A stretch of 64,000 bases of DNA from Pararhodobacter zhoushanensis (GTDB lineage Bacteria > Pseudomonadota > Alphaproteobacteria > Rhodobacterales > Rhodobacteraceae): the NCBI RefSeq assembly GCF_003990445.1, contig NZ_REEZ01000001.1:496001-560000 (forward strand), written 5' to 3'. The notes under the pieces were generated by a model. It did no database searches. It was not told the DNA's origin and saw only the letters and a list, made by a program, of their open reading frames with translations. Of this stretch, positions 9,167-17,052 are shown in pieces (within the stretch, counting starts at the first letter, position 1; each line of letters begins with the position of its first letter). The translations under genes and the position numbers were made by a program.

Positions 9167-9240
9167 GCGGGTATGATGTAATGGTAGCCTGTCAGCTTCC
9201 CAAGCTGAACGCGCGGGTTCGATTCCCGCTACCCGCTCCA
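9167..9240 (+). tRNA. tRNA-Gly, anticodon CCC
   Basis: Complete cloverleaf of 74 bases: acceptor stem GCGGGTA paired with TACCCGC, a short D arm, anticodon stem TCAGC/GCTGA around the loop TTCCCAA (anticodon CCC, reading GGG), T arm CGGGTTCGATTCCCG, discriminator T and encoded CCA at 9238-9240. Part of its 3' half recurs in diverged form at 16994-17040, which marks this gene as a likely integration target. Confidence 0.97.
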
Positions 9241-9514
9241 ATATTTTCCGAACATTTGTCAGCTTAGTCAAAGCCTTACAGGCTTCATCCGGCCCCGCTG
9301 GATGCAGCCACAAAAGAGAACTTTCGGACAACTTCTACCAGAATCGGCCAGAGTTTCCCGAAGAGTTCCGAAGAAAATCCCGAAGACCGTCCGCAGTTGT
9401 TCCTCACACTCATTCGAGTGTTGAGCATCAACGTCGAACACCTGCGATCCACGCATCTCAGATCGAGCGACCCAAAGTACACGCTTTAGCGCACATCGCG
9501 CATTAGGCGCCGAC

Positions 9515-9610
9515 TTCAAACGTCGGTAAGGCGTTCGAACTGTGATCCTGCCCCACCCGGAAAAAGACCAATCGCTGGGAACCGGCAAAAGCAGCAGGCC
9601 GGACTTCTTT
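9515..9610 (+). pseudogene. Remnant of hicA toxin gene
   Basis: No intact frame exists between the tRNA and hicB. Read from 9515, the translation gives FKRR, a stop at 9527-9529, then TVILPHPEKDQSLGT. This matches the C-terminal pattern of HicA mRNA interferases (FKHP...TVPHPKKD...GT), directly upstream of hicB as in hicAB modules. The N-terminal half is not recognisable. The match is short, so I call it a probable remnant only. Confidence 0.45.
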
Positions 9611-9660
9611 AGCCCGGCAACCCTGTCGCCCCTCCGCCGCATAAACTTGCGCGCTTGGAC

Positions 9661-10059
9661 ATGCGCGACGACACCGCGATCGTTCATCATAACGAAGGCA
9701 GCGCGTTTGGCCTGACCTTCCCTGACCTTCCTGGCTGCTTCGCCGCGGCCGACAGCTGGGATGAGATCTCCGCTGCCGCCGCCGAAGCGCTCGATCTTTG
9801 GTTCGAGGACATGCCGTCCGGACAGCCGGCATCACTTTCAGAGATCCGGGCCCGCCCTGAAGTTTCCAGAAAACGTAAAGCCGGGGCAGATCTGCTTCCT
9901 GTGCCAGACATCCCCGCCGACACCGCCGTGCAGCGCGTCAACATCCCGATTGAGCGCGGGCTGTTACAAGCGATCGATCAGACAGCAAAAGCGAGGGGCA
10001 TGAACCGTTCGTCATTCCTCGCCTCAGCCAACCGTCGTGAACTGGTGGGAGCGAGCTGA
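9661..10059 (+). CDS. HicB-family antitoxin (apparently orphan)
   Basis: 132 residues from ATG 9661 (a TTG lies two codons earlier). The N-terminal half is the HicB partial RNase-H-like fold: AIVHHNEGSAFGLTFPDLPGCFAA is diagnostic in its middle part FPDLPGCF. The C-terminal part, about 95-128, looks like a ribbon-helix-helix DNA-binding unit (NIPIERGLL, then NRSSFLASANR). HicB normally neutralises the HicA RNase and represses the operon. Here the upstream hicA seems to be destroyed, so the antitoxin may persist as a solo regulator or as relict. It sits at the tRNA-proximal end of the suspected island. Confidence 0.8.
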   Translation: MRDDTAIVHHNEGSAFGLTFPDLPGCFAAADSWDEISAAAAEALDLWFEDMPSGQPASLSEIRARPEVSRKRKAGADLLPVPDIPADTAVQRVNIPIERGLLQAIDQTAKARGMNRSSFLASANRRELVGAS

Positions 10060-10323
10060 CACGCCTTTGCGTCACAAAAGTCATGAAGCGGCCATTCGCT
10101 GCGCTGACGCCAACGGCAGCGATGCGAATGAACGGTTTCTTTGCGAAGCTTGGTCATCCTTGCATTAATCGGCCCTGACCCCAGAAAGACTTTTTTCCAC
10201 TTTCGGCTTTTAATTGACGTTTTGTGCGTTAGTGTCGCGGCGTATCAGTGGGCTGTTATTGCCTATCAAAGAATGCCCATCGCAGGAATGCGGCGTTCTG
10301 CAAACATAATTTAAGGATATGCT
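10060..10323. other. Intergenic leader of the giant secreted protein
   Basis: 264 bases without a gene. The first part contains a GC-rich stretch resembling intergenic repeats seen in this order (10080-10150). The second is AT-richer and must hold the promoter of the 1520-residue gene; a TTGACG lies near 10215, but I see no -10 at standard spacing. AAGGA at 10313-10317 is the ribosome site of the next gene. Confidence 0.4.
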
Positions 10324-13300
10324 GTGCGTTTTTTGCCCATTTTGGCGGCGGCCACTTCATTGGCCGCAGCCCCAGCGTTTTCGCAAAATCTGCTGTCCAA
10401 CGGTGATTTTGAAGCCTCAGGCGATATCGGATTTGGCGATCATCGATCCTTTGATATTCCAGCGTGGGAATCGGGTGGCGATTGGTTTGGTGACTTTGTC
10501 GCCTGGAACTCGGGTAACCTCGTTCAGGTCGATGGACCAGGGGGTGGGGATTACGGCATCCAAGGCCCCGAGAGCGATGCCGACGGTGGTCCTGCCGGAT
10601 CGGCCATGCATTATGTCGACGACTCTGGCGGTGGCCGCAAAATGCTCTTGTGGCAGTATTTCACACCGCAATGCTCAGGCCCGGTTCAGGGATCGGCGGC
10701 ATTTTCGAACCGAGCCGACCGCAGTGCGCCGGTTGCGCTGGGCATCGTTGGTCCAATTTCGAACCCGCTCACAGCCCCGGTGCGCGGTGAGTATTTACTT
10801 GAAGAGAGCGCCGTCGCGCAGGATTTCATAGCGTTCAGTACCGCGTTCGACGCGGTCGCCACGACTGAAATGCTCCCCAGCACGCCGTCACGCACCCATT
10901 CTTGGGTGGTCTTGCCTACCAATTCAGCGAACGTCGTCGCAGGGCAAACGTATGCTTTTGCCGCGCGTGTTTCGGGCGACGGCAACGTCGATAATGCCTC
11001 GGTCACATTTGTTTCGATGGATGATTGTGGGGCAGAGCCGAATATCGGAGCGGTAATGGTCCCTGATCTTGCCCCCTTCGTGCCGCCCTTCAACCCCAGC
11101 GATATCTCCCTGACAAAGTCCTGCGAAGCGCTTGAGGCAAGTGTTCAGAATGGCGTTTTAGGACAAACCTGGCGCTGCTCAGTCGACGTCACCGTGCCCC
11201 AGGCGCCGTTTGCCGGCAGCTTGACGGTGAATGATCTGTTGAGCCTGCCTGCCACGGTCACCGGCGAGATCCTCTCCAGCAGCGCGCAATCGGGCAATTT
11301 TGATTGCTCGGCGGTGAGTTCTTGCACAATTGACGGTGCGCAATTCGACCCAACGGGTACGGAGACCCTGCTGTTCGAGGTATTTGTCACCAGCGAAACG
11401 GCTGAGCGTTCAGAGTCACTGCGAAACTGCACCAGCGGCAGCTATGTGTTGAACGATTCGACCGTGTCGGTCCCGGGGAATTGCGTTCAGGCCAGCTGGT
11501 CGGCCCGTCATGACGTGGTGAAAACCTGCGATCCGGTGGTTGCGACCGACTCCGGCGTGATGTCGCTGACGTGCCAAATCACCGTGACTGGCAGCAACCT
11601 GCCTGCCAACGGCTACGTCTCGCTCATCGACATGTTCGCCGCACGGCCACCCGCCGTAGCGACCGTCGTGGGCCCGATGACCAACATCACCTCTGCCCAG
11701 CCGTGGAGCTGTCAGGACGTCCCCAACACCGGCGGGACGGGAACGATGGGCGTGTGCCAACTGAGCACGCTGGACCTTTTCAACGCGGGTGGCAGCTCGG
11801 TCATCGACATGACCTTCGATTTCAGCACCGATCAGGCACCGACGCAGGTGATGAATTGCCCGATCCTGAGCATTGAAGACACGCTGATGCCCGGCAACCA
11901 GCGCAGCGCTTCCGGTACGATGCGCAACCCCGATGGCACTGGATGGCCTGCCGGGCTGCCCGACGGCTGCGTGTTCATCGATGTGCCCGCGCCCACCCCG
12001 CCCCTGCCGGTGCTGGAAGATGCGTACACCTGGAAAACCTGTGATGCCCCGCGTGCGGGTCAGGTTGCGGGTGTCAACGGCTTCCTGTGGGACTGTGAGG
12101 TCAATGTCGTTCTGAACCCCGCGCCCTTCGACGGCAGCTTTACCCTGACCGAGAACGCCAGTCAGATCACCAATGGCACCGCGTCTTTCGTGTCGGCGTC
12201 GCGACCCTGTACCGGCATCGGCACCGATGTGCTGCAGTGTCAGATCGATGGGGCAACTGCCTCCAGCGCGGAATCGATGTCGGTGCAAATGTTTGCCACC
12301 GCGACAAACGCCAATCGCAGCATCCTGTGGACCAATTGCGTCAGCGGTCTCGGCACCGGGACTGACCCTCAGATCGACACCGGTGACTACTGCGTGCAGA
12401 CCGAGATCAAGCCCGGTGACACCCCACGCGAACCGGTGATTGATGTCACCAAGACCTGCGAGGCGATCGGTGATCGGCAAATTCTGTCGCGGACGATGTG
12501 GACGCAGCAAATGCGCTGCGCGCTGACCGTCACCACAAACGGTGTGCCGTTTACCGCGCCGTTGTGGCTGACCGAAGAGCTGAGCTATGGTCCCAACTCG
12601 ATGAACGGCACGCTTGCAACGCTCTCCTCGGCGGACCCGTGGCAGTGCTCGCAGGCGCCCTATACGGCGCCGGGTCAGCCTCAAACCAATCTTCCCGTTT
12701 GCGCGATTTCAGGCGCACAATTCCCGCATGCGGCAGGCAGCTCGACAGTTTTCGTCGATTTTGTACTCTATGGCGGACCGGCAAGCATCAGCGGGGCGGA
12801 AAACTGCGTTGGTGTGACCTTGGGCGATGCGCCAGTGGTCGACATCAGCGCTGCGCAAGCGTCGGATTGTGTGGAAATCTTGCCCACGCCCGTGCGTCTT
12901 GACCCCGAACTGTCGATCATCAAGACCTGCGAGCCTGCGGTGCAGGGTACGCCTGGAGCGTGGCATGTCGCCTGCGCGATCATCGTGTCCGGCAGCAACC
13001 TGCCCGGCGGACAGCTGGTGCAAGTTCGCGACGAAATCACGTCGTCCGCCACGCAATCCGTCTGGCAGGGAGCTTTTACGCCCTCGGCCTCGTGGAACCT
13101 GGCGTGTGGCGGGTATGGCGTCGCGAATGGGATTGGCAGCGCCTGCACGCTGACCACCGATTTCATCACCGCTCAGGGAGGCAGCGTAACGATCCCCTAT
13201 AGCGCTGATTTCACCGGGCCTGCCGGGCGGACGCTGAACGGCGCGCAAGCGCAGAACTGCGTCTACGCGGATCTGTCGAACCCCAGCCTGCATGCACCGG

Positions 13301-14886
13301 CAGGCGCGAATAACCGCCAATGCGTGCCCATTCTGTTCAACCACTCACCGCTCGACCCGATCCTGAATGACCCCGCTGTGGTGGTCGATCCGACGGGCCC
13401 GATTGTCGCCCCCGGCGGCACCATCGGCAGCGTCGCCAACCCCGTCATTGTTGATCCGGCTGTCCCTTCGGGTCCGGTTTTTGGCGGTAACATCGGCACT
13501 CTGGGCGGCGGAGGCTTGGTCGTTCCGCCGACCCCGCAGATCGAGGTATCGAAAACATGCGACCCCATCGTCGTCGCTGCCGGGGCGCAAACCTCGCAGA
13601 TGCGATGCACCATCTCGGTGACGGGGCACAACCTGACCTCGGCCAACAGCCTGCATCTGATCGATCAGTTGGGCTATTCGCCCTGGGCGGCAAATGATCC
13701 GGTGGTGCCGATCGTCGGCCCGTTCAGCAATCTCACCGGCGCGAACGGCTGGACCTGCAATGACTATCCCTATGGTCTTGCCCATGGCGCTGGTATCTGC
13801 TCGGTTTCCGGCGATGTGATGAATGCCGCCGGTGGCACCATGACATTCGAGTGGACGGCTGAGCTTGGCCCGCTTGCCGCCGGTCGCACCTTGCGCAACT
13901 GCGCTACCGTCCGTCTCGACAGCCTGAGCAATTACGTCGATGCACCGTCGGCTTGCGCCGAAATCGACGTCTTGCACGAGCCCGAGGCGCTGCCCACTTC
14001 CGCCGAGCTGCTGCTGACGCCCGAGCAGATCGGCAGCTGCCACGCGGACCGGGATCGTCAGGTCTATGACTGTGTGGTCGGGGTGCGGGTCGAAAACACC
14101 GGCGCGCAACCCTACAGCGGCCCAATCGCTCTGCTTGAGACGTTCGGAGCACCGGGCATCAACGCCGCACATCTGGTCTCGGGCGAAGGTGCAGCCTGCG
14201 CTGGTCCCGTCGACAACGCGGTGACCTGTTCGATCCCTCAGGTATCGTGGGAGCCGCGTCACGTTTACCGGATCGACCTGTCGCTGGTGGTGCCCGGTCG
14301 GCCCAATGGCGGTCAGATGCAGGTCTGCGCGCAGCTTGGCGCGCCCGACAATCAGCGCCAGCGTATTGCGATGGTGCAGAACAGCCTGAACCAGCGCGGC
14401 TATGACGCCGGGCCGGTGGACGGCTTCACGGGGCGCCGGACCTATGGCGCTCTGGCGCAGATGCAGGCGCGGTTGGGCGTGCCGCTCAGCCGCGAGCTCG
14501 AACCGGCGCTCTTGAGCGCGCTGGGGCTGGCACCGCCAACGGAACCGGCTTGCACCCAGATCTCGCTGCCGCGCATGCCCGCGCCAGCGTTGCAGTGCAA
14601 CCGCGCGACGACCGTCGCACAGGGCGAGAGTTGTGCCTGTCGCTATGACGGCATGACCCGTCGTAATGCCACCAGTTGTTCGTGCCCGCGTGGGACCGAG
14701 CTGGTGGGGGGCGAAGGCTGCCGCCGTGTCGTGGCACCTGCGCCGGTGCCTGCCCCGACACCGACAGCGCCACACGACAACCCGGATGAGCCCTGCCGGT
14801 CCGGCCTGACGCTGAACGGGGCTTGCGTCTCGCTCGGTGGGCCATTGCTCGAAACACTGATCCCGGGTCTGCGCGGAAGCGAATAA
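10324..14886 (+). CDS. Giant secreted cysteine-repeat protein with peptidoglycan-binding domain
   Basis: 1520 residues from GTG 10324, with AAGGA six bases upstream. A signal peptide (about 1-20, ending AAPAFS) leads to a beta-rich domain opening NLLSNGDFE (about 21-250). Then come six repeats, each opening with Lys-(Ser/Thr)-Cys-(Asp/Glu): the Cys residues are at 267, 402, 573, 712, 869 and 1079, and most have a second Cys 15-25 residues later in a C-x-(I/L/V)-x-V strand. A divergent seventh unit has Cys 1239. A Pro/Gly/Val linker separates units five and six (about 1035-1070). Near 1344-1402 is a peptidoglycan-binding fold (VQNSLNQRGYDAGPVDG), then a Cys-rich tail. Units resemble DUF11-type extracellular repeats. 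Function unknown; probably periplasmic or cell-surface, wall-attached. Confidence 0.85.
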   Translation: MRFLPILAAATSLAAAPAFSQNLLSNGDFEASGDIGFGDHRSFDIPAWESGGDWFGDFVAWNSGNLVQVDGPGGGDYGIQGPESDADGGPAGSAMHYVDDSGGGRKMLLWQYFTPQCSGPVQGSAAFSNRADRSAPVALGIVGPISNPLTAPVRGEYLLEESAVAQDFIAFSTAFDAVATTEMLPSTPSRTHSWVVLPTNSANVVAGQTYAFAARVSGDGNVDNASVTFVSMDDCGAEPNIGAVMVPDLAPFVPPFNPSDISLTKSCEALEASVQNGVLGQTWRCSVDVTVPQAPFAGSLTVNDLLSLPATVTGEILSSSAQSGNFDCSAVSSCTIDGAQFDPTGTETLLFEVFVTSETAERSESLRNCTSGSYVLNDSTVSVPGNCVQASWSARHDVVKTCDPVVATDSGVMSLTCQITVTGSNLPANGYVSLIDMFAARPPAVATVVGPMTNITSAQPWSCQDVPNTGGTGTMGVCQLSTLDLFNAGGSSVIDMTFDFSTDQAPTQVMNCPILSIEDTLMPGNQRSASGTMRNPDGTGWPAGLPDGCVFIDVPAPTPPLPVLEDAYTWKTCDAPRAGQVAGVNGFLWDCEVNVVLNPAPFDGSFTLTENASQITNGTASFVSASRPCTGIGTDVLQCQIDGATASSAESMSVQMFATATNANRSILWTNCVSGLGTGTDPQIDTGDYCVQTEIKPGDTPREPVIDVTKTCEAIGDRQILSRTMWTQQMRCALTVTTNGVPFTAPLWLTEELSYGPNSMNGTLATLSSADPWQCSQAPYTAPGQPQTNLPVCAISGAQFPHAAGSSTVFVDFVLYGGPASISGAENCVGVTLGDAPVVDISAAQASDCVEILPTPVRLDPELSIIKTCEPAVQGTPGAWHVACAIIVSGSNLPGGQLVQVRDEITSSATQSVWQGAFTPSASWNLACGGYGVANGIGSACTLTTDFITAQGGSVTIPYSADFTGPAGRTLNGAQAQNCVYADLSNPSLHAPAGANNRQCVPILFNHSPLDPILNDPAVVVDPTGPIVAPGGTIGSVANPVIVDPAVPSGPVFGGNIGTLGGGGLVVPPTPQIEVSKTCDPIVVAAGAQTSQMRCTISVTGHNLTSANSLHLIDQLGYSPWAANDPVVPIVGPFSNLTGANGWTCNDYPYGLAHGAGICSVSGDVMNAAGGTMTFEWTAELGPLAAGRTLRNCATVRLDSLSNYVDAPSACAEIDVLHEPEALPTSAELLLTPEQIGSCHADRDRQVYDCVVGVRVENTGAQPYSGPIALLETFGAPGINAAHLVSGEGAACAGPVDNAVTCSIPQVSWEPRHVYRIDLSLVVPGRPNGGQMQVCAQLGAPDNQRQRIAMVQNSLNQRGYDAGPVDGFTGRRTYGALAQMQARLGVPLSRELEPALLSALGLAPPTEPACTQISLPRMPAPALQCNRATTVAQGESCACRYDGMTRRNATSCSCPRGTELVGGEGCRRVVAPAPVPAPTPTAPHDNPDEPCRSGLTLNGACVSLGGPLLETLIPGLRGSE

Positions 14887-14914
14887 GCGCGGGAACGACG
14901 TGTCATCAAGTCCG

Positions 14915-14947
14915 GGGCCATGCATCTCAGGTGCATGGCCCTTTTTT
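14915..14947 (+). terminator. Intrinsic terminator after the giant gene
   Basis: Perfect ten-base stem GGGCCATGCA (14915-14924) with TGCATGGCCC (14932-14941), seven-base loop, then six T residues. It lies 29 bases after the stop codon. Confidence 0.92.
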
Positions 14948-14989
14948 CTGCCCTCATGTCACCGGCGACAGCACATCAGTCAGGACGCA

Positions 14990-15300
14990 TATGTATCACC
15001 CGACAGCCGTTGAACGGCGCGCGGGTAGCGGTTTTCGAGTAAACTTGGGTGACCTTCTTGCGCCGTATCGACAGGCTCCCGTCGGCCCGAGCAGGTCATT
15101 CGCTGCGGCGAACAGAAGGCTCTGCCAAGGGCCGGGAGCGACGCGCGCGCCAAGTGACCAAGCGCGCGGGCTACCCGAGCGCTCCACGACCACTTCGAGC
15201 CGATAGGCGACATGCATGACCCGCGCGGCGTGTCGCCCAACCTCCCGAATCCCTCACAGTACGCGAATACCTCATCTCACCCTCAAACGCGGGCGTTTGC
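14990..15300 (-). pseudogene. Possible decayed HxlR-type regulator
   Basis: There is no clear gene between the terminator and the dehydrogenase. On the minus strand one frame reads IGSKWS, then QRMT 33 residues later, then RRE, roughly the spacing of the HxlR hallmarks (GxKWS, ISQRM, LRELE) allowing for small indels. HxlR regulators often sit divergent to a short-chain dehydrogenase, which is the arrangement here. The rest of the protein does not align in any one frame. This is a weak pattern read by eye. Confidence 0.35.
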
Positions 15301-15373
15301 GCAAGAATCGGGTCGAGTGAGTAGCGAGCCATTGCCTATGCAGTTCCCGAGACATCATCAGACGGAGACGGAA

Positions 15374-16126
15374 ATGCTTCTGGAAGGCAAGACAATCATT
15401 ATTACCGGCGCAAGCAGCGGCATCGGTGCCTCGGCTGCGAGAATTTTCGCGGCGCAGGGCGCGCGACTGGTCCTCGGTGCGCGCCGTGCCGAACTGCTTG
15501 AGACAATCGTCGACGAGATTTCGGCTGCCGGTGGCGAAGCGGATTTCATCGTAGGGGACGTTGAAGAGAACGGCTATGCAGAAGAGTTGGTAAAACGCGC
15601 CGAAGAGCGCTTCGGTGGCCTGGATGGTGCGTTCAACAATGCTGGCACAACAGGAGACGTCGGGCCGATCCCCGACATGGATGAGAGCAACTGGCACAAA
15701 GTGATGGCCGTGAATCTCAACAGCGGATTCTATGCGGCAAAGCATCAGATACCGGCGATGCGCAAACGCGGCGGCGGCTCGATTGTCTTCACGTCGTCTT
15801 TCGTCGGGCACACGATCGGTCTGCCTGGCATGGGCGCTTATGCCGCGGCAAAGGCGGGCCTGATCGGCATGACTCAGGTTCTGGCAGCGGAACATGGGGC
15901 CCAGAACATCCGCGTCAACGCGCTCCTGCCCGGAGGCACCATGACGCCGATGGCTGGAGAGGATGCCGGGTTTCACGAGGTCGTGCGGGGTTTCCACGCA
16001 CTGAAGCGTATGGCTGATCCATCCGAGATCGCGCAGGCGGCTCTCTTCCTGCTTTCCGATCATGCGTCCTTCGTGACCGGGACCGCAATGATCGCGGATG
16101 GCGGGAACTCGATCAACAAATTCTAA
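15374..16126 (+). CDS. Short-chain dehydrogenase/reductase
   Basis: NAD(P)-dependent oxidoreductase of the classical SDR family. From ATG 15374 (250 residues, preceded by GGAGACGGA) the cofactor motif TGASSGIG is at residues 11-18, NNAG at about 91-94, and the catalytic Tyr-Lys pair at Y156 and K160 (YAAAKAG). The C terminus FVTGTAMIADGGNS is that of FabG-like members. The open frame extends 54 codons upstream without family-like sequence. No substrate can be assigned. It stands alone inside the suspected island with an AhpD-like gene downstream. Confidence 0.92.
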   Translation: MLLEGKTIIITGASSGIGASAARIFAAQGARLVLGARRAELLETIVDEISAAGGEADFIVGDVEENGYAEELVKRAEERFGGLDGAFNNAGTTGDVGPIPDMDESNWHKVMAVNLNSGFYAAKHQIPAMRKRGGGSIVFTSSFVGHTIGLPGMGAYAAAKAGLIGMTQVLAAEHGAQNIRVNALLPGGTMTPMAGEDAGFHEVVRGFHALKRMADPSEIAQAALFLLSDHASFVTGTAMIADGGNSINKF

Positions 16127-16331
16127 GGCACTCGAAGCGGACCTTGCTCAATTAAGGGACAGCGTCCGCTTCGTCCTGCCCCCCTTACCTTGTCGCGCCA
16201 GAGCAAGGCGCACGATGCCAGCGATGGCCGGTTTGTAGAAGCTGCACCGAATTGCGCTGCGTGGACAGTGCCGGCTTTGACGTTCCCCCGCAGATTCTAT
16301 AGTCGGGCCTCAAAACTAGAGGAGCAGGAAA

Positions 16332-16787
16332 ATGACCGGAACGAGCCGGATTTCGCCTCAAGAGGTTTCCCCTGAGGTCTACAAGGCAATCGCCGCAGTC
16401 GATCAAAAGCTTTATAGCTCATCTCTCGGCAAGCCACTGATCGAACTGGTGAAAGTGCGCATATCGCAAATCAACGGATGCGCGTTCTGCCTCGATATGC
16501 ATAGCCAGGCGGCGATCAAGGCCGGCGTGTCGGAGCGCAAGCTCTTTTTGCTCGCCGGCTGGGACGAGGCCGGCGTCTGGACCGAGCGGGAACAGGCCGC
16601 GCTCCGCTGGGCCGATGCCGTGACCAAGATCAGCGAGAGCCGCGCCGCAGACGACGCCTACTCCCCTCTTGTCGATCTGTTCGACGCCAAGGAGATTGCC
16701 GATCTTACGATGCTGATCGGGCTGATGAACCTCTGGAACCGCCTTGCCGTCGCCATGCGCTATCAGGTTCGGCCCGACGCCGAGTAG
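16332..16787 (+). CDS. Carboxymuconolactone decarboxylase/AhpD-family protein
   Basis: 151 residues starting at ATG 16332, with GAGGAGCAGG just upstream. The core is an alpha-helical AhpD-like fold with the redox motif C50-A-F-C53 and H57 (CAFCLDMH). This CxxCxxxH pattern marks the peroxidase-partner branch rather than true decarboxylases. The rest matches the family: LIELVKVRISQINGC before the motif and EREQAALRWADAVTK after it. Likely role: thiol-dependent handling of peroxides or other electrophiles. The preceding dehydrogenase ends 205 bases upstream, so coexpression is not certain. Confidence 0.88.
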   Translation: MTGTSRISPQEVSPEVYKAIAAVDQKLYSSSLGKPLIELVKVRISQINGCAFCLDMHSQAAIKAGVSERKLFLLAGWDEAGVWTEREQAALRWADAVTKISESRAADDAYSPLVDLFDAKEIADLTMLIGLMNLWNRLAVAMRYQVRPDAE

Positions 16788-16993
16788 ACAGGATCGCGCC
16801 GGACTGAGGCGAAGGCGCTTAAGGTGGCCGTTGGCCGTAACAGACGCCAACGTCCATCATGGGCCGAATCGAACATTGCAACGAGACGCTGCAGCTCAAT
16901 TGGGAACGCCGCACCTGGACATAAGTCCCAAGGAAACCCCGAAGACATAACGATAGCTAATTATTTTCATATAGTTACAAGATTATCAGCTAG

Positions 16994-17040
16994 GCTTCCC
17001 AAGCTAAACGCTCAGGTTCGGCTCCCGCTACCCGCCTCCA
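16994..17040 (+). repeat. Diverged copy of the tRNA-Gly 3' half
   Basis: GCTTCCCAAGCT (16994-17005) is identical to the tRNA anticodon-arm sequence, and TCCCGCTACCCGC near the end is identical to the T-arm/acceptor sequence. Over about 46 bases I count five substitutions and one inserted base before CCA. The D arm and 5' acceptor strand are missing, so it cannot be a functional tRNA. It is best read as an old attachment-site repeat. Confidence 0.75.
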
Positions 17041-17052
17041 GATCTGACAGAC

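What the first reader, a model, noticed from the sequence alone, without database searches (positions are those of the whole stretch)
10324..14886. 1520-residue secreted protein built from Cys-bearing KTC repeats with a wall-binding end
Six units open with K-(S/T)-C-(D/E) (Cys at 267, 402, 573, 712, 869, 1079) and a seventh diverged unit at 1239, followed by a peptidoglycan-binding fold and a Cys-rich tail. Few such repeat proteins combine regular paired cysteines with a wall anchor. A long extracellular or periplasmic fibre stiffened by disulfides is plausible: adhesion, surface layer or contact-dependent function.
Basis: partly seen in the sequence, partly recalled or inferred. Interest (0 to 1): 0.75.

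Follow-up and report, generated by a model that had tools for sequence, protein, structure and literature searches.

The report
Cross-linked stalk protein on mobile DNA
A bacterium of the Rhodobacter group carries, on a small piece of acquired DNA, a gene for a long exported protein whose six repeated domains look built to be locked by an internal lysine-asparagine bond plus sulphur bridges; its repeats reach no named family and it is probably the stalk of a wall-tethered fibre, a function that still needs a bench test.

Summary
The 1520-residue ORF has six units with six cysteines each (not pairs), a weakly related seventh, a PG_binding_1 domain and a Cys-rich tail. The two units modelled are beta sandwiches (unit 6 pLDDT 77; unit 1 about 78-92). 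Six of unit 6's seven best PDB fold matches are Gram-positive collagen-binding or pilin domains, with modest TM-scores. Units 1-6 keep Lys, Asp/Glu and Asn at CnaA-like spacing, with hydrophobic i+-2 neighbours; unit 7 lost Lys and Asn. The protein has 8 lysines against 53 arginines, six of the 8 at that site. I propose a stalk of CnaA-like domains, each locked by an isopeptide bond and up to three disulfides, tethered to peptidoglycan. No repeat family reaches cut-off; the nearest, DUF7933, falls short. One relative was found (93%), near a repABC set in Rhodobacter sp. NTK016B; in the window the gene lies in a 7.8-kb tRNA-Gly island missing from a sister genome. dN/dS 0.185 and 52 of 52 conserved cysteines argue for a working protein. 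The bonds, export and adhesion are inferred: no coordinates, outer-membrane translocator or binding domain were seen.

The parts
10324..10383 (+). Sec-type signal peptide (residues 1-20), no lipobox seen
   Evidence: hydropathy; cleavage site and lipobox judged by eye, no predictor run
10384..11085 (+). N-terminal domain (residues 21-254), begins QNLLSNGDFE; no family, no confident fold
   Evidence: Pfam nothing below E 3, PDB by sequence none, AF2 pLDDT about 30-40
11101..11505 (+). unit 1: triad K265-D304-N368, 6 Cys
   Evidence: (pLDDT about 78-92)
11509..11991 (+). unit 2: triad K400-D436-N511, 6 Cys
   Evidence: not modelled
12019..12414 (+). unit 3: triad K571-E610-N671, 6 Cys
   Evidence: not modelled
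12439..12897 (+). unit 4: triad K710-E751-N827, 6 Cys
   Evidence: not modelled
12910..13347 (+). unit 5: triad K867-D903-N978, 6 Cys (the third Cys, 928, lies two columns off the others)
   Evidence: not modelled
13348..13539 (+). Pro/Gly-rich linker (residues 1009-1072)
   Evidence: no Cys, no Lys
13540..13977 (+). unit 6: triad K1077-D1114-N1192, 6 Cys; weak DUF7933 match
   Evidence: AF2 pLDDT 77, pTM 0.72; Foldseek; DUF7933 15.1 bits vs cut-off 26.5
13999..14349 (+). unit 7, diverged: Lys and Asn positions hold L1231 and V1334, 5 Cys
14356..14484 (+). PG_binding_1 domain (residues 1345-1387)
   Evidence: 26.1 bits over cut-off 23
14551..14826 (+). Cys-rich tail (9 Cys, residues 1410-1501)
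   Evidence: own genome the only match in 198 family genomes searched
14914..14942 (+). terminator-like hairpin with T-run after the gene
   Evidence: 6 terminator-like sites in the region against 7.4 in shuffles, so weak
10087..15143 (+). block shared with Rhodobacter sp. NTK016B (92.4% DNA identity) in a different surrounding
9195..9246 (+). left end of island: 3' end of tRNA-Gly(CCC) 9167-9240
16994..17045 (+). right end of island: imperfect second copy of the tRNA-Gly 3' end

Best explanation
A horizontally acquired, Sec-exported stalk protein. Six CnaA-like Ig domains are each held by an autocatalytic Lys(first strand)-Asn(near-last strand) isopeptide bond assisted by an Asp/Glu, and by up to three disulfides formed after export. 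The C-terminal PG_binding_1 domain tethers the rod to peptidoglycan; the N-terminal domain is the free end and probably the binding part. Shown: the ORF, unit homology, triad and Cys conservation, the PGB domain, transfer between lineages, purifying selection. Predicted: the beta-sandwich fold of units 1 and 6. Inferred: the bonds themselves, export, tethering, and a fibre or adhesion role. Rough odds: CnaA-type isopeptide chemistry in most of units 1-6 about 0.7; a fibre exposed outside the outer membrane about 0.4.
For: Fold: unit 6 model all-beta; 6 of the 7 PDB hits at E<=0.001 are CNM N2, EbpC, LrpA, ACE19, CNA and CppA, the seventh an integrin. Triad positions: K1077, D1114, N1192 in model strands 2-7, 37-47, 117-128; unit 1 likewise, K265, D304, N368 in strands 242-255, 279-287, 344-356, last strand 359-372. 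PMC12617251 (passages read) says CnaA-like bonds join first and penultimate strands. Spacing: K-acid 36-41, acid-N 61-78, against SpaD 37/75, DUF11 33/58, DUF7933 35/60 from that paper's residue numbers. Lys economy: 8 Lys, 53 Arg, 6 of the 8 Lys at the triad site; the relative has 7 Lys and keeps the same 6. Buried phase: 33 of 36 i+-2 neighbours hydrophobic (Ala and Cys counted) versus 14 of 36 at i+-1; without Ala and Cys 23 versus 8 of 36, reached by 0 of 20000 random draws of polar residues. DUF7933 profile: local score 16.45, 0 of 60 column shuffles reach it; the forced global alignment pairs K-K, D-D and N-N, counted by eye. Lys and Asn both absent in unit 7. dN/dS 0.185, 52 of 52 Cys kept.
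Against: No coordinates were returned, so Lys-Asn and Cys-Cys distances are unmeasured. In unit 6 a short strand (131-134) and a last strand follow the Asn strand, so it is penultimate only if the short one is not counted. Units 3 and 4 have Glu where CnaA-type domains usually have Asp. The spacing test is lax: other families in the same table range from 33 to 56 and from 38 to 97. Low Lys is not unique here: nine other window ORFs have 0.0-5.3% Lys, one exported-type ORF none. The DUF7933 match is weak: hhalign E 0.027, probability 1.8, local alignment covering the acid but not the Lys or Asn; global score 6.8, E 0.19 and best shuffle 16.05. TM-scores of the Gram-positive hits are 0.44-0.56, the top hit is an integrin, and integrins, antibody fragments and pore toxins also appear in the top 50. 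No outer-membrane export part was recognised, and the N-terminal domain is unidentified.
Confidence: 0.55

Rival explanations
1. Periplasmic strut: the protein never crosses the outer membrane; it binds peptidoglycan at one end and an envelope component at the other, as a stiffened spacer or envelope-protection factor.
For: Sec-type signal, PG_binding_1 end, no barrel recognised, no lipobox by eye; disulfides fit the periplasm. In another genome of the genus a DUF11-stalk protein has a C-terminal region that looks like a barrel by eye (L134); this protein has nothing like it.
Against: Seven domains plus an N-terminal domain and a linker would form a rod longer than a typical periplasm is wide (general knowledge, not measured); a patchy, mobile distribution (2 of 19 genus genomes) suits surface or interaction functions better (inference).
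Confidence: 0.3
2. Disulfide-only Ig stalk: the conserved Lys, acid and Asn are structural and no isopeptide bond forms.
For: Six Cys per unit could suffice for stability; [quoted passage not shown] units 3 and 4 carry Glu.
Against: Lys kept in 6 of 6 units of a Lys-poor protein, with hydrophobic i+-2 neighbours, and absent together with Asn in unit 7.
Confidence: 0.25
3. Decaying or chance ORF without function.
For: Narrow distribution; unit 6 alone has dN/dS 0.585, though on only 5 synonymous changes.
Against: dN/dS 0.185 over the gene, open in both genomes with one 3-residue indel, 52 of 52 Cys conserved.
Confidence: 0.03

Closest known systems
DUF7933 (PF25564), predicted CnaA-like isopeptide domain
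   Same: Lys-acid-Asn in the same order and similar spacing; a conserved Cys column; tandem repeats in long frames. PMC12617251 reports disulfides as prevalent in DUF7933 (passage)
   Different: Only 1 of 7 units matches, at 15.1 bits under the 26.5 cut-off; units here have six Cys and longer loops
DUF11 / CLIPPER (PF01345)
   Same: Ig-like stalk repeats with Lys-Asp-Asn; disulfides co-occur in 29.7% of them (PMC12617251, passage)
   Different: No match listed for any unit at E<=10 (HMMER's filters drop most above 0.1); no hit in the own genome
CNA N2 / SpaD-type CnaA domains of Gram-positive adhesins and pilins
   Same: Fold neighbours; SpaD 37/75, units 2, 5 and 6 36-37/75-78
   Different: Gram-negative host, six Cys per unit, no sortase signal seen, peptidoglycan-binding domain as anchor
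PG_binding_1 proteins of Rhodobacteraceae and other Alphaproteobacteria (e.g. lytic transglycosylases)
   Same: PG_binding_1-type region
   Different: The seven loci read share only that region, no units

Membership tests
DUF7933 (PF25564) | score over Pfam gathering cut-off (26.5 bits) | tested here: not met
   best unit 15.1 bits, 1 of 7 units; 0 hits in own genome
DUF11 (PF01345) | score over Pfam gathering cut-off (24.6 bits) | tested here: not met
   no hit listed at E<=10; 0 in own genome
CnaA-like isopeptide domain (structural class) | Ig-like beta sandwich | tested here: met
   predicted only, for 2 of 7 units, with fold neighbours and weaker support; the other units were not modelled
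CnaA-like isopeptide domain (structural class) | Lys on first strand, Asn on penultimate strand | tested here: met
   predicted strands of unit 1 fit; unit 6 fits if a short strand is not counted; in sequence Lys and Asn in 6 of 7 units
CnaA-like isopeptide domain (structural class) | catalytic Asp | tested here: inconclusive
   Asp in 4 and Glu in 2 of the six units with Lys and Asn
CnaA-like isopeptide domain (structural class) | covalent Lys-Asn bond | not testable with these tools
   needs mass spectrometry or a crystal structure; no model coordinates were available
Fibrillar adhesin | signal peptide and tandem stalk domains | tested here: met
   repeats; signal peptide by hydropathy and eye only
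Fibrillar adhesin | adhesion domain | tested here: inconclusive
   N-terminal domain has no family and no confident model
Fibrillar adhesin | surface sorting or anchoring domain | tested here: inconclusive
   PG_binding_1 present, but outer-membrane passage is unexplained
PG_binding_1 (PF01471) | score over gathering cut-off (23 bits) | tested here: met
   26.1 bits

The most novel reading that the evidence does not exclude
A new, unfamilied class of doubly locked Gram-negative stalk domain: every unit from 1 to 6 carries an autocatalytic Lys-Asn isopeptide bond and three disulfides, in a protein that has shed nearly all other lysines, tethered non-covalently to peptidoglycan and spread between replicons by plasmid and tRNA island.
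Probability: 0.4. Interest if true: 0.7.

Novelty: new variant of a known kind. Interest (0 to 1): 0.52.

Why it matters
Intramolecular isopeptide bonds had been identified mainly in Gram-positive surface proteins; PMC12617251 (passages read) widened this in 2025 to 26 Pfam families and reports disulfides beside isopeptide bonds in 58.2% of such domains in Pseudomonadota, so the combination itself is known. These units would be a further kind that no Pfam model scanned here reaches, with six Cys per unit (how rare that is was not tested) and lysine kept almost only at the proposed bond site. It gives a directly testable case of how a Gram-negative cell uses such domains with a peptidoglycan-binding end, and a candidate for robust protein scaffolds.

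Tried and rejected
Known repeat family: Pfam, NCBIfam and PHROGs scans of the whole protein listed only matches in the PG_binding region; PADLOC was not scanned. Close relatives: the genome-contig scan uses short exact peptide patterns and so reaches close relatives only; 8 stretches matched a pattern and 1 was confirmed. Distant relatives: the unit profile found the own genome alone in 1 of 295 family genomes (nearly one per genus) and 1 of 385 class genomes, and 2 of 19 genus genomes. In some searches only the best 10-13 first-look candidates of a genome were scored, so absence there is not absolute; every candidate was scored. The phylum search listed 15 further genomes of 398 at E<=0.1 (best 2.5e-4), each with one short partial match in a frame of 47-283 aa, 9 of the 15 crossing stop codons; I judged them spurious from the table and read none. 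The whole-protein search matched 30 of 61 genomes, but in the rows listed all except the two full-length ones lie within residues 1294-1472; I read the ORFs of seven such loci and found other proteins. The N-terminal domain gave 5 weak hits besides its own (6 of 295 genomes, E 0.0011-0.0095), taken as chance without reading them. The tail: own genome only, 1 of 198. Plasmid, phage and viral collections: none. PDB by sequence: one phytase at E 0.49 with A1, none with A3; the full protein weakly matched lytic transglycosylases and a spore cortex enzyme in and around the PG_binding region.

Papers: no paper held both 'intramolecular isopeptide' and 'Alphaproteobacteria'; DUF7933, an isopeptide-DUF11-adhesin set and a fibrillar-adhesin set each returned only PMC12617251; a CnaA/E-set search listed 10 of 14 papers, of which I opened none besides PMC12617251; a DUF11-Rhodobacter-adhesi search listed 6 papers, judged off-topic from the listing. 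Of PMC12617251 and PMC7830162 I saw passages, not the whole text.

The N-terminal part of the second model is uninformative (pLDDT about 30-40), so the fold search with it is weak support: its 3 hits at E<=0.001 are SpaD twice and PrgB, but the alignments run into the poorly modelled part, and adaptor-ear domains and arginine deiminases also appear. In one search I used 4 of 8 printed rows (two sense genes against two relatives) and dropped 4 from ORFs in other frames without gene evidence. In one search I aligned 16 of the 30 DUF7933 loci that fetched, from 5 of 7 genomes with matches. In one search seven of the fourteen A3 rows (the window's) were used.

Full report
Observation. The ORF 10324-14886 (+) encodes 1520 residues from a GTG start. 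The Cys pattern is more regular than described: six per unit in units 1-6, five in unit 7, two before the units, nine in the tail, 52 in all. The units are true repeats: mean pairwise identity about 22% (range 12-37); 10 of 21 pairs score above all 200 shuffles, 7 of 21 with Cys masked, and the other 11 pairs do not stand clear of shuffles on their own. Unit 7 is only weakly related. Units 1 and 3 are alike (33%), as are units 2, 4, 5 and 6 (21-37%), which hints at two subtypes, though units 1 and 4 also match (25%, z 9.9).

Architecture. A hydrophobic leader with a plausible AFS|QN cleavage site (by eye; hydropathy), a 230-residue N-terminal domain without family or solved relative, units 1-5, a 64-residue Pro/Gly linker, units 6-7, a PG_binding_1 domain over cut-off and a Cys-rich tail. 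In the Pfam, NCBIfam and PHROGs scans of the whole protein nothing outside the PG_binding region was listed.

Fold. AlphaFold2 on a 14-row alignment of units from the window and its one relative gave unit 6 as an all-beta domain, pLDDT 77, pTM 0.72. In a second job unit 1 came out at about 78-92 while the N-terminal domain failed at about 30-40. Foldseek with unit 6 against the PDB: 7 hits at E<=0.001, of which 6 are CNM N2, EbpC, LrpA, ACE19, CNA (1amx) and CppA, all Gram-positive collagen-binding or pilin proteins; rank 1 is an integrin domain. SpaD, SpaA, FimA, SspB, SpaP and BspA domains follow in the top 50, together with more integrins, antibody fragments and a few pore toxins. TM-scores of the Gram-positive hits at E<=0.001 are 0.44-0.56, so this is a class-level match.

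The triad. PMC12617251 (passages read) describes CnaA-like domains as Ig-like folds with a Lys-Asn bond between first and penultimate strands, catalysed by Asp, and lists residues for DUF11, DUF7933, SpaD and others. Units 1-6 have Lys, then Asp (4 units) or Glu (2 units) 36-41 residues on, and Asn 61-78 residues further, always just before the fifth Cys. SpaD has 37/75 and DUF7933 35/60 by that paper's numbers; other families there range more widely (33-56 and 38-97 in the rows I saw), so spacing alone is a lax test. In unit 1 the predicted strands place Lys in the first and Asn in the penultimate strand; in unit 6 a short extra strand follows the Asn strand. Triad residues have hydrophobic i+-2 neighbours in 33 of 36 cases against 14 of 36 at i+-1 and a background of 42%, Ala and Cys counted; 23 against 8 of 36 without them. 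The protein has 8 Lys and 53 Arg; six of the 8 Lys are the triad Lys; the relative has 7 Lys and keeps the same six. If Lys and Arg were interchangeable at basic sites, six of six Lys would have a chance of about 6e-7 (computed with the 52 Arg of the mature part), but the units share ancestry and are not independent. Low Lys itself is not unique: nine other window ORFs have 0.0-5.3% Lys. Unit 7 lacks Lys and Asn together. This pattern is the main argument for an isopeptide bond.

Family test. One of seven units reaches DUF7933 weakly (15.1 bits, cut-off 26.5). hhalign of seven units against 16 DUF7933 domains from genomes of the same class gave E 0.027 and probability 1.8, the local alignment covering the acid but not the Lys or Asn. 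A rerun scored 16.45, reached by 0 of 60 column shuffles (mean 9.5, maximum 16.05), reversed 11.06; a forced global alignment (score 6.8, E 0.19) pairs K-K, D-D and N-N, counted by eye. So it is not a member of DUF7933 by Pfam's rule; it looks like a distant cousin in the same structural class.

Distribution and mobility. NTK016B came from beach sediment during a plastic (PCL) biodegradation experiment and groups with Pararhodobacter (PMC7830162, passages read). A 5.06-kb block (10087-15143) is shared at 92.4%; outside it no match longer than 49 bases was found between the window and the 20.6-kb locus L002. Synonymous divergence of the gene between the two genomes is 0.19, against 0.93 and 0.67 for two genes that flank the island in the window (an ssb-like and a lytic-transglycosylase-like ORF, named by eye): it moved between lineages. 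In NTK016B it lies about 11-15 kb from a repABC-type set (ParA-like; ParB_N with a sub-cut-off RepB match; RP-C at E 9e-60), with a resolvase and a transposase nearby, which points to a plasmid. In the window it sits between the 3' end of tRNA-Gly(CCC) and an imperfect second copy of that end at 16994; in sister genome G018 (93-94% identical there) the two flanks meet at a single copy. The 7.8-kb island (G+C 61.1% against 65.6% outside it) also holds a HicB-like antitoxin, a short-chain dehydrogenase and a carboxymuconolactone-decarboxylase-like gene; only these three other island ORFs were scanned, and none is an integrase.

Selection. dN/dS is 0.185 over the gene and 52 of 52 Cys are conserved; by region it runs from 0.07 to 0.59, the highest in unit 6 on only 5 synonymous changes. 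Synonymous divergence varies along the gene (0.05 in unit 6, 0.43 in unit 5; chi-square P about 7e-8 on fractional counts), suggesting recombination among alleles.

Mechanism. I propose an exported, peptidoglycan-tethered rod of isopeptide- and disulfide-locked Ig domains with a free N-terminal domain. The lock would resist shear, proteases and unfolding. Whether the rod leaves the periplasm is open: a DUF11-stalk protein in another genome of the genus ends in what looks by eye like an outer-membrane barrel (L134), but no such part was recognised here. A periplasmic strut is the chief rival.

Noticed in passing
window 9195-17045: 7.8-kb tRNA-Gly island with imperfect direct repeats and a clean empty site in sister genome G018; none of the three other island ORFs scanned is an integrase.
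   Followed up: partly
window 9542-10059: HicB-like antitoxin (9655-10059); no intact hicA was noticed, and a 57-aa frame just upstream (9542-9715) resembles the end of HicA by eye only (recalled, not tested).
   Followed up: no
window 10324-14886 vs L002: Synonymous divergence along the gene is mosaic (0.05 in unit 6 to 0.43 in unit 5), suggesting recombination between alleles.
   Followed up: partly
L134 / L135 (G016:C11): A 1779-aa frame in the same genus carries two DUF11 matches and a C-terminal region that looks like an autotransporter barrel by eye.
   Followed up: no
L083 and sister loci (G252:C6:2423-10159): A 3202-aa frame in the same family holds 17 DUF7933 matches.
   Followed up: no
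window 15212-16126: The island's short-chain dehydrogenase region has a 92% identical copy in sister G018 at another place (C1:3671650), which suggests that the island's genes have different histories.
   Followed up: no
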